From the NCBI GenBank assembly GCA_002691385.1, contig NZHT01000001.1, positions 1 to 45,570 of the forward strand: a stretch of 45,570 bases of DNA. Reading direction: 5' to 3'. The stretch comes from Flammeovirgaceae bacterium (lineage in GTDB: Bacteria; Bacteroidota; Bacteroidia; Cytophagales; Cyclobacteriaceae). The notes below the pieces were generated by a model. That model did no database searches. It was not told the DNA's origin and was given only the letters and a program-made list of their open reading frames with translations. Shown one piece after another: positions 37,757-39,631 of the stretch. A program made the translations under genes and the position numbers. The number at the start of each line of letters is the position of its first letter. Within the stretch, counting starts at the first letter, position 1.

Positions 37757-38134
37757 TTAAAATGGCAAATCGTCATCTTCAGAGAAACTTTCTCCTATGG
37801 CTTCTGTAGGAGGATTGGAATCTGTTATAGCTGATTCTGAATAATTGACATCAGAACTTACTGCTGAGAGCCTCCAAGCTTGGAGGGTATTGAAATACTT
37901 GTCATTCCCTGAAGGATCTGTCCATTTTCTTCCTTTTAAATTGAATTCTACTTTTAGGGTATCTCCCAAATTAAATTCTTCCAAGAGATCACATTTATCT
38001 TGTATCAAATCGAATTTCAGTAGTTCAGGATATTGTGGATTTTCCACATATTCAACAACAAATTCGCGTTTACGAAACGAATCATTGATTTTTGTTGTTT
38101 CATATTTTTCTATCAATTTACCTTGAAGTTCCAT
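37757..38134 (-). CDS. DUF3127 protein with an SSB-like acidic C-terminal tail
   Basis: 125 residues. The first 85 match DUF3127, a Bacteroidota family predicted to be an OB-fold-like beta barrel (MELQGKLIEKYETTKINDSF, then KREFVVEYVE and TLQAWRL). A Ser/Pro/Asn-rich linker follows, and the protein ends EDDDLPF. This tip is the same design as the C-terminus of single-stranded DNA-binding protein (DDDIPF in E. coli), which recruits repair and replication proteins. Its role is unknown; the tail suggests work at DNA. It is monocistronic and divergent from the small membrane protein at 38188. Confidence 0.85.
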   Translation of the reverse strand: MELQGKLIEKYETTKINDSFRKREFVVEYVENPQYPELLKFDLIQDKCDLLEEFNLGDTLKVEFNLKGRKWTDPSGNDKYFNTLQAWRLSAVSSDVNYSESAITDSNPPTEAIGESFSEDDDLPF

Positions 38135-38187: not shown

Positions 38188-38343
38188 ATGAAAAGATCTA
38201 AACAAATATTTTTTATAGTGGCGGGAATATTTTTGCTTTTGATGGTGTTAATAGGTTACGACATATCTCAACGTACAACTCCGCCTTGGGCTAAAAAGAA
38301 TTTAAAACATGACAATAAAAACATCAAAATCAAGCGGCAATAA
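38188..38343 (+). CDS. Small one-helix membrane protein (51 residues)
   Basis: ATG-to-TAA frame of 51 residues: a short basic N-terminus (MKRSKQ), one membrane helix (IFFIVAGIFLLLMVLIG), then YDISQRTTPPWAKKNLKHD and a basic tail. The helix followed by a (Y)D-S-RTT-P motif recurs in tiny Bacteroidota membrane proteins, as I recall. It overlaps the DUF2452 gene by 35 bases in another frame, so the two are probably co-translated. Function unknown. Confidence 0.65.
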   Translation: MKRSKQIFFIVAGIFLLLMVLIGYDISQRTTPPWAKKNLKHDNKNIKIKRQ

Positions 38344-38776
38344 GATAGATTTAACGACTATAGATCTTGAAAAAGGGCGTGATATGATCACCAATTTTCC
38401 AGGTCTGATCCAATTTGCCCATAGTGTTGGAAGCGCTTTGATTAAGCCAGAAGATAAAGGAAGAATTAAAGGAAATGCAGTAGCGGCTATGCACGATCAA
38501 ACGGATCGACAGTTCCATCAAATTTATGATCAAATGCAAACTTTGATTAATCAAGCTAATTTGTTGAAAGAGCGAGTTACAATTTCTGAACGTATCTACC
38601 AAGCAGATATTGGATTTACACCTGTGATAAACAAAATTTACTATTTGTACAAACGAAAAAATGAAGGTGATGTATTGTCTATGGTAGGGCCGAAAGATTG
38701 GGGTAAAAAAATGCCTTTTGAAGATTATATTGCAGAAGTTAGATTGATGTCAGATCATACTTGGGAGGTCATTTAG
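38309..38776 (+). CDS. DUF2452 protein
   Basis: 155 residues. Landmarks of DUF2452 are NFPGLIQFAHSVGSALIKPE near the N-terminus, a helix QIYDQMQTLINQANLLKERV, then FTPVINKIYYLYKR and a C-terminal KKMPFEDYIAEVRLMSDHTW. It appears cytoplasmic and without catalytic motifs; the function of the family is unknown. The start lies inside the upstream small gene; the ATG at 38309 is the first in frame. Confidence 0.82.
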   Translation: MTIKTSKSSGNKIDLTTIDLEKGRDMITNFPGLIQFAHSVGSALIKPEDKGRIKGNAVAAMHDQTDRQFHQIYDQMQTLINQANLLKERVTISERIYQADIGFTPVINKIYYLYKRKNEGDVLSMVGPKDWGKKMPFEDYIAEVRLMSDHTWEVI

Positions 38777-38953: not shown

Positions 38954-39631
38954 CTAATTAAATTTTTCATTCACCAGCAAATTGTCTGCTACTTTCTTTG
39001 AAATCGAGTATTGTTTGTCTTTAATTTTTATCTTGATAGACCTGTCATAAGCTATTTTGTCAATGAGACCTATTTCTGTTTTGATGGAGATGCCTAAATC
39101 TTCAAGATAGTTGAGAAAATCTTTCGAGGTATCGCTCACTGCGAGAACAATACAATTTTTCCCTATATCGACGGCGGACAAGTTTTTAGTTATTCTTTGC
39201 GGTATTTTACCATGCTTGTCGGGAATTGGATCACCATGAGGGTCAAAGTTAGGATAGCCTAATAATTTATCAATTTTCCCCACTAATTTTTCAGATTTTA
39301 TGTGCTCTAATTGCTCAGCAACTTCATGAATCTCTATCCAGTCAAAGTCTAATTTTGTAAACAAAAAGGTTTCCCATAAACGATGTTTGCGAACAATTTT
39401 TAAACCATTTTGTTCACCTGAAGGGGTTAAAGTAATCTTTTTATATTTTTCATGATTGATTAAATTTTTTTCTTTAAGTCTTTTTAGCATTTCGTTAACA
39501 GTAGAAGATTTGAGTTTTAAATATGAAGCTAATTCATTTGTGCCTACATCTTTTTTTTCTTCAACACCGGGAGCAAGAAAAGAAAGATAAATCAGTGCTT
39601 TTAAATAATTTTCTTCTGTTAACGAGATCAT
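38954..39631 (-). CDS. Metal-dependent regulator, DtxR/MntR family
   Basis: 225 residues: an N-terminal winged helix (LTEENYLKALIYLSFLAPGV, then ELASYLKLKSSTVNEMLKRL), a dimerisation and metal domain with HEVAEQLEH, and a C-terminal SH3/FeoA-like domain. At the N-terminal metal position (Asp8 in B. subtilis MntR, Met10 in DtxR) the aligned residue appears to be Asn, so manganese versus iron cannot be decided. It is divergent from the TonB receptor gene with a palindrome between them, and probably represses that receptor and itself when metal is plentiful. Confidence 0.9.
   Translation of the reverse strand: MISLTEENYLKALIYLSFLAPGVEEKKDVGTNELASYLKLKSSTVNEMLKRLKEKNLINHEKYKKITLTPSGEQNGLKIVRKHRLWETFLFTKLDFDWIEIHEVAEQLEHIKSEKLVGKIDKLLGYPNFDPHGDPIPDKHGKIPQRITKNLSAVDIGKNCIVLAVSDTSKDFLNYLEDLGISIKTEIGLIDKIAYDRSIKIKIKDKQYSISKKVADNLLVNEKFN

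What the first reader, a model, noticed from the sequence alone, without database searches (positions are those of the whole stretch)
37757..38134. DUF3127 protein ending in an SSB-like tip (EDDDLPF)
The acidic linker and LPF tip copy the SSB C-terminus that recruits RecQ, RecO, PriA and others. With an OB-like fold predicted, this unknown Bacteroidota family may be a second single-strand DNA-binding or repair-recruiting protein.
Basis: partly seen in the sequence, partly recalled or inferred. Interest (0 to 1): 0.5.

Follow-up and report, generated by a model that had tools for sequence, protein, structure and literature searches.

The report
Second SSB-like protein in Bacteroidota
A small protein that cellular genome annotation leaves as "function unknown" looks like a second single-stranded-DNA-binding protein, kept by many bacteria of the Bacteroidota beside their usual one and carrying the same partner-recruiting tail tip; phage annotators already call its relatives by that name, but no laboratory test was found.

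Summary
The ORF at 37757-38134 (-) encodes 125 aa ending SEDDDLPF and carries a full DUF3127 domain (PF11325, E=1.7e-25). The tip is not chance: all 78 complete close relatives end [LVI]PF, as do 18 of 22 distinct weaker phylum matches ([LIVMA]PF) and 21 of 25 viral copies, against 0 of 1677 other ORFs. A canonical SSB is present too, in this genome and in 169 of 171 phylum genomes with DUF3127. In 12 of 29 viral records an ERF annealing gene lies close by. Added here: nearly always one copy per genome, in two alternative subtypes, and one lineage without the tip although a genome in it keeps its SSB tip. DNA binding, partners and cellular role are inferred, not shown.

The parts
37757..38134 (-). 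DUF3127 gene, 125 aa: SSB-like OB protein with acidic LPF tip
   Evidence: ORF; PF11325 E=1.7e-25; PHROG 4932 SSB E=7.7e-34 over the whole length
37853..38134 (-). OB-fold domain, residues 1-94
   Evidence: AlphaFold2 strands 2-15, 21-29, 37-44, helix 45-53, strands 59-72, 78-91; VIA-align Z 11.9, rmsd 3.1, 95 aligned, to an SSB
37781..37852 (-). Variable, probably disordered linker, residues 95-118
   Evidence: pLDDT under 50 in most of 94-116; mean modal residue frequency 0.31 for residues 93-116
37760..37780 (-). C-terminal tip EDDDLPF, residues 119-125
   Evidence: Conserved in the family; same last five residues DDLPF as the genome's canonical SSB

Best explanation
[quoted passage not shown] A compact OB domain would bind ssDNA through conserved aromatic and basic residues. 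A disordered linker carries an acidic LPF tip that would dock into the same pockets that partner enzymes use for the SSB C-terminal tip. Because nearly every genome sampled also keeps canonical SSB, it most likely handles a specialised pool of ssDNA, recombination or repair intermediates being my first guess, and phages have taken it up as the SSB of their recombination and replication modules. Shown by computation: gene, fold prediction, sequence relationship to SSB, tip conservation, coexistence with SSB, phage gene context. Inferred: DNA binding, oligomeric state, partner recruitment, biological role.
For: Whole-length match to PHROG 4932, single strand DNA binding protein, E=7.7e-34, and a weaker one to PHROG 44 SSB, 1.9e-5; six other family members, both subtypes and one tip-less, also match 4932, and this genome's canonical SSB matches it weakly at 0.0028. 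Solved SSBs are found by phmmer, best Deinococcus SSB E=1.3e-4 for the whole chain. A DUF3127-only profile finds canonical Bacteroidota SSBs at E down to 1.3e-7 at full length and 5.8e-5 with the tail cut off, in a small ORF set. AlphaFold2 model in OB order; the 50 best Foldseek rows are SSBs except two PriB rows, E 1.0e-5 to 1.6e-4; VIA-align best Z 11.9, rmsd 3.1, 95 aligned. Tip in 78 of 78 complete close relatives, 30 of 30 and 20 of 20 phylum sets that overlap by 8 genomes, 21 of 25 viral copies. Positions 20, 71 and 87 are aromatic in at least 172, 166 and 172 of 173 distinct sequences; W71 aligns with the RKW tryptophan of SSBs, by position E. coli Trp-88, one of four base-stacking residues named in PMC3991886 (passages seen). 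Phage context: ERF in 12 of 29 records, erf-exonuclease-DUF3127 in phage P12024L, RecE-like exonuclease and DNA polymerase processivity factor nearby in two contigs; canonical phage ssb genes overlap exonuclease or erf genes in the same way in several listed records (H95, H103, H117, H126).
Against: No experiment on any DUF3127 protein was found; one paper in the library uses the name and none the accession. Confidence of the model is moderate (pLDDT 74, pTM 0.54). Sequence links to canonical SSB are partly thin: neither single stretch of the best phmmer match is significant alone (0.084 and 76), only 5 of 31 SSBs are found by the tail-less profile, and the profile-profile comparison gives probability 53% over 62 columns. 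PF00436 does not match. No conserved DNA-repair neighbour was seen in chromosomes. The tip is absent in all four f12 genomes examined and in phage Freya_1, so it is not indispensable everywhere. 125 of 296 phylum genomes have no match.
Confidence: 0.8

Rival explanations
1. PriB-like restart factor: an OB dimer descended from SSB that acts with PriA at stalled forks rather than coating ssDNA.
For: PriB structures are among the close matches (Foldseek ranks 19 and 39; VIA-align Z 11.2, rmsd 2.5, 84 aligned).
Against: The conserved acidic LPF tip is an SSB hallmark; PriB lacks it (recalled). Family profiles name SSB, not PriB. Several phage copies sit with annealing proteins and exonucleases.
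Confidence: 0.07
2. Tip-bearing adaptor or competitor: the OB domain has lost DNA binding, and the tip modulates access of partners to SSB.
For: Tip residues P124 and F125 are as invariant as any core residue in the 45-row alignment.
Against: Aromatics at candidate stacking positions and the Arg at 69 are strongly kept; no canonical SSB was recognised in the DUF3127 viral records (0 of 29), so the protein may serve alone there, although many of those records are fragments; in f12 the core persists without the tip.
Confidence: 0.08
3. OB domain for another ligand (RNA, protein) with an LPF tip arising by chance or for a different docking partner.
For: OB folds bind many ligands (general knowledge); no assay was found.
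Against: Tip conservation across the phylum against 0 of 1677 background ORFs; SSB hits by sequence and structure.
Confidence: 0.05

Closest known systems
PHROG 4932 / PF11325 DUF3127 (phage single strand DNA binding protein; for example Flavobacterium phage mymlan6-1 gp36)
   Same: Same family: whole-length match including the tip; the RefSeq record cites PF11325 for its SSB name.
   Different: This copy is a chromosomal gene in a cell with its own SSB, not part of a phage replication module.
Canonical bacterial SSB (PF00436)
   Same: OB fold, disordered linker, acidic LPF tip; the genome's own SSB also ends DDLPF.
   Different: PF00436 is not reported for this protein with E up to 10; the OB domain here ends near residue 92 and its motifs differ.
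Competence SSB, SsbB, of Streptococcus pneumoniae
   Same: An alternative SSB beside the housekeeping one; its C-terminal tail was tested by truncation (PMC3128108, abstract seen).
   Different: SsbB is described there as expressed only in competence; no expression data were seen here.
DdrB of Deinococcus
   Same: Lineage-specific 'SSB-like protein' (PMC3575483, start of abstract seen in the search listing).
   Different: Relationship by sequence or structure was not tested here.
PriB
   Same: SSB-like OB fold.
   Different: No SSB-type tip (recalled).

Membership tests
DUF3127 (PF11325) | Profile match above the curated cut-off | tested here: met
   89.5 bits against 27, residues 2-89
PHROG 4932 single strand DNA binding protein | Whole-length profile match | tested here: met
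   E=7.7e-34, residues 1-125 on profile 1-117 of 117
Canonical SSB (PF00436) | Profile match above cut-off | tested here: not met
   No PF00436 row with E up to 10; NCBIfam SSB models match only far below cut-off (18.6 bits against 254)
SSB superfamily (wider sense) | SSB-type OB fold | tested here: met
   Predicted model; SSBs lead both fold comparisons; prediction only
SSB superfamily (wider sense) | Disordered linker plus acidic hydrophobic-Pro-Phe tip | tested here: met
SSB superfamily (wider sense) | ssDNA binding | not testable with these tools
   Needs purified protein
SSB superfamily (wider sense) | Homotetramer or two-domain dimer | not testable with these tools
   Only single chains could be modelled
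PriB | Close match to PriB fold | tested here: inconclusive
   PriB rows are tied with SSB rows in VIA-align (Z 11.2 against 11.9)

The most novel reading that the evidence does not exclude
Many Bacteroidota run a two-SSB system: housekeeping SSB plus, nearly always, one DUF3127 protein per genome, of either of two alternative subtypes, both bearing the same tip. The second protein would hand ssDNA to annealing and recombination enzymes and compete with SSB for the same docking pockets, and phages would have captured it repeatedly as a ready-made recombination SSB. The f12 family would be a natural experiment in which the second SSB works without recruiting partners.
Probability: 0.35. Interest if true: 0.6.

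Novelty: new member of a known kind. Interest (0 to 1): 0.45.

Why it matters
The SSB tail tip is a main organiser of bacterial genome maintenance. If a phylum as large as Bacteroidota widely has a second protein with the same tip, then models of RecO, RecQ, PriA and RecG recruitment in gut and marine Bacteroidota are incomplete, and a DUF could be renamed with a clear, cheap test. It might also give a host-matched SSB for recombineering with Bacteroidota annealing proteins.

Tried and rejected
PF03837 (RecT) was sought in 29 viral and phage records: 0 of 29, so a neighbour in L116 that I first read by eye as RecT is not claimed; PHROGs leaves it unknown. In phage Freya_1, not among those 29, a RecT-like annotation does lie near the gene.

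A conserved chromosomal operon was sought in 100 loci. The commonest immediate neighbour, in the window a DUF2452 gene (the link between the window gene and the cluster is by eye), lies divergently at position -1 in 22 loci; four other clusters reach position -1 or +1 in 10 to 13 loci each. Clusters were named by eye only; DinB-like and AddA-like genes appear in 6 and 7 loci at varying positions. No repair operon is conserved.

0 of 29 DUF3127 viral records hold PF00436, but many are fragments, and only 2187 of 50,697 phage records match the SSB query used, so this is weak evidence of replacement. No base rate for ERF in other phages was measured.

DUF3127 hits in genomes labelled Desulfobacter, SAR324, Methylococcales, Rickettsiales and PVC were not pursued as transfers: four of the five are metagenome bins and contamination is likely. 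Of 14 named control genomes one has a hit, Bacteroides ihuae.

The iterated profile also drew in canonical SSBs; two such extra hits, in L054 and L069, were counted there (80 of 80) and are removed (78 of 78). In the divergent set one split gene (G077) is counted twice: 19 of 23 end [LIVMA]PF as printed, 18 of 22 distinct; L190, cut off at a contig end, gave no row. Eight of the 20 family representatives repeat genomes of the 30-locus set. The subtype pattern misses some type II sequences, so subtype statements rest on the tree and on reading the sequences.

A literature search on essentiality in Bacteroides listed one paper, on pneumococcus, not opened.

Full report
What is there. The ORF at 37757-38134 on the minus strand encodes 125 aa ending SEDDDLPF. 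It matches PF11325, DUF3127, over residues 2-89 (E=1.7e-25). Its genome, of which the window is contig 66, has one DUF3127 gene and one canonical SSB gene, PF00436; that SSB ends ESDDLPF, so the two proteins share their last five residues.

Is the tip more than chance. Of 78 complete relatives from genome contigs, 78 end in PF: 75 LPF, 2 VPF, 1 IPF (the other two of the 80 loci are cut off by contig ends). Of the 30 highest-scoring phylum matches, 30 end [LVMA]PF; of 20 family representatives, 20 (8 of these repeat genomes of the previous set); of 23 weaker matches, 19 end [LIVMA]PF and 21 end PF, or 18 and 20 of 22 when a split gene is counted once. Of 25 complete viral copies, 21 end [LIVM]PF; the other four carry DLPW or DVPF followed by one to nine more residues. 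All 31 canonical SSBs collected end DLPF. Background: 0 of 1677 other ORFs end [LIVMA]PF. Conservation drops in the linker and returns at the tip. One lineage, family f12, has no tip in 4 of 4 genomes: the reading frame simply ends in an acidic stretch; in the one f12 genome whose SSB was collected (G006, L162) the SSB still ends DDDLPF. Phage Freya_1 also lacks it.

Fold and kinship. AlphaFold2 on an alignment of 50 window, cellular and viral sequences gives mean pLDDT 74, block means of 78-89 over residues 1-90, with strands 2-15, 21-29, 37-44, helix 45-53, strands 59-72 and 78-91. Foldseek's 50 best solved structures are SSBs apart from two PriB chains, E 1.0e-5 to 1.6e-4. VIA-align 2 puts an SSB first, Z 11.9 (rmsd 3.1, 95 aligned), with PriB tied at 11.2. 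By sequence, PHROG 4932 'single strand DNA binding protein' matches the whole protein at 7.7e-34, and it also matches six further family members scanned, including a type II and a tip-less one. phmmer finds solved SSBs, best 1.3e-4 for the whole chain, though neither of its two stretches is significant alone. A DUF3127-only profile finds Bacteroidota SSBs at down to 1.3e-7 (6 of the 12 rows shown are below 1e-4), or 5 of 31 SSBs at best 5.8e-5 without the tail; these E-values are for the small ORF set searched. Against this, PF00436 itself does not match and the tail-less profile-profile comparison is weak, probability 53%. I therefore place it in the SSB superfamily in the wider sense, not in PF00436.

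Likely DNA-binding residues. Over 173 distinct sequences, positions 20, 71, 80, 81 and 87 are aromatic in at least 172, 166, 168, 164 and 172, and position 69 is Arg in 164. W71 aligns with the tryptophan of the RKW motif in SSBs, by position E. coli Trp-88; [quoted passage not shown] That these residues bind ssDNA here is inference.

How the tip should work. PMC10164576 (passages seen, including part of the abstract) describes the E. coli tip DFDDDIPF as highly conserved and docked in electrostatically similar pockets of many partners; in its RecG model, Arg residues are placed to read the terminal Phe carboxylate and the Asp side chains. SEDDDLPF has the same make-up, so I infer docking into the same partner pockets.

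Distribution. In a sample of 296 genomes of the phylum, 171 have DUF3127 and 293 have PF00436; of the 171, all but G024 and G220 also have PF00436. Four of the 171 show two matches (G045, G077, G232, G290), and G077's two are halves of one split gene. Of 29 genomes behind window-like loci, 28 have exactly one copy; four of the 29 carry non-Bacteroidota labels that may reflect contamination. The tree of 117 rows (short alignment, many forks unresolved, a few genomes entered twice) separates a type II clade of 20 rows (support 100/100) from the window-like type I. Within the window's own family f1, the window genome has type I, while 5 of 5 other f1 genomes whose loci were read have type II: G146, G186 and G049 by the tree, G273 and G111 by their sequences (L086, L098); two further f1 genomes were not read. 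One copy per genome of either type suggests that the subtypes replace each other. The window genome is about 90% complete, so a missing second copy cannot be excluded.

Phage context. 122 of 50,697 phage records match, 79 of them Flavobacterium phages. RefSeq names several of them 'single strand DNA binding protein', in one case citing PF11325. In Nonlabens phage P12024L the order is erf, YqaJ-type exonuclease, DUF3127, with the last two genes overlapping. In phage 11b, erf lies about 0.5 kb upstream. In phages Gundel_1, mymlan6-1 and Freya_1 the neighbours include a NinG endonuclease, a helicase and primase, and a RecT-like and a NinB gene respectively; in Fpv5 and FL-1 most neighbours are unnamed. 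Of 29 records (26 viral contigs and 3 named phages), 12 have ERF, each within about 2.3 kb of DUF3127 by my reading of the coordinates; 0 have PF00436 and 0 have RecT PF03837. Two contigs have a RecE-like exonuclease and a DNA polymerase processivity factor within about 4.5 kb. All 33 viral rows fall outside the type II clade.

Known or new. In the held library 'DUF3127' occurs in one paper, on Pantoea phage AAS23, whose gp25 is called SSB and is said to contain a DUF3127 domain (PMC8004638, passages seen); 'PF11325' occurs in none. The identity as an SSB-like protein is thus already implied in phage annotation. What I did not find described is the cellular protein as a second, tip-bearing SSB of Bacteroidota. 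The nearest functional analogue I know is pneumococcal SsbB, an alternative SSB whose tail was deliberately truncated (PMC3128108, abstract seen); there the truncated protein still fulfilled the ssDNA reservoir function, a caution against reading too much into the tip.

Verdict. It is a new member of a known kind rather than a new kind.

Noticed in passing
38309-38776 +: DUF2452 gene (PF10504, E=8.3e-14), divergent from the DUF3127 gene; what looks like the same gene recurs at position -1 in 22 of 100 loci, function unknown.
   Followed up: partly
L177, L181, L220, L221: Four f12 genomes with DUF3127 but without the PF tip; the SSB of one of them (G006, L162) keeps its tip.
   Followed up: partly
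L085, L086, L087, L098, L099: Genomes of the window's own family carry the other DUF3127 subtype (type II).
   Followed up: partly
L054:3365-3820 and L069:3236-3772: In two loci the canonical SSB gene lies about 4 kb from DUF3127.
   Followed up: no
L062:7989-8366: DUF3127 near the end of a contig of Desulfobacter latus; transfer or contamination not resolved.
   Followed up: no
38954-39631 -: Iron-dependent repressor family regulator with a FeoA domain.
   Followed up: no
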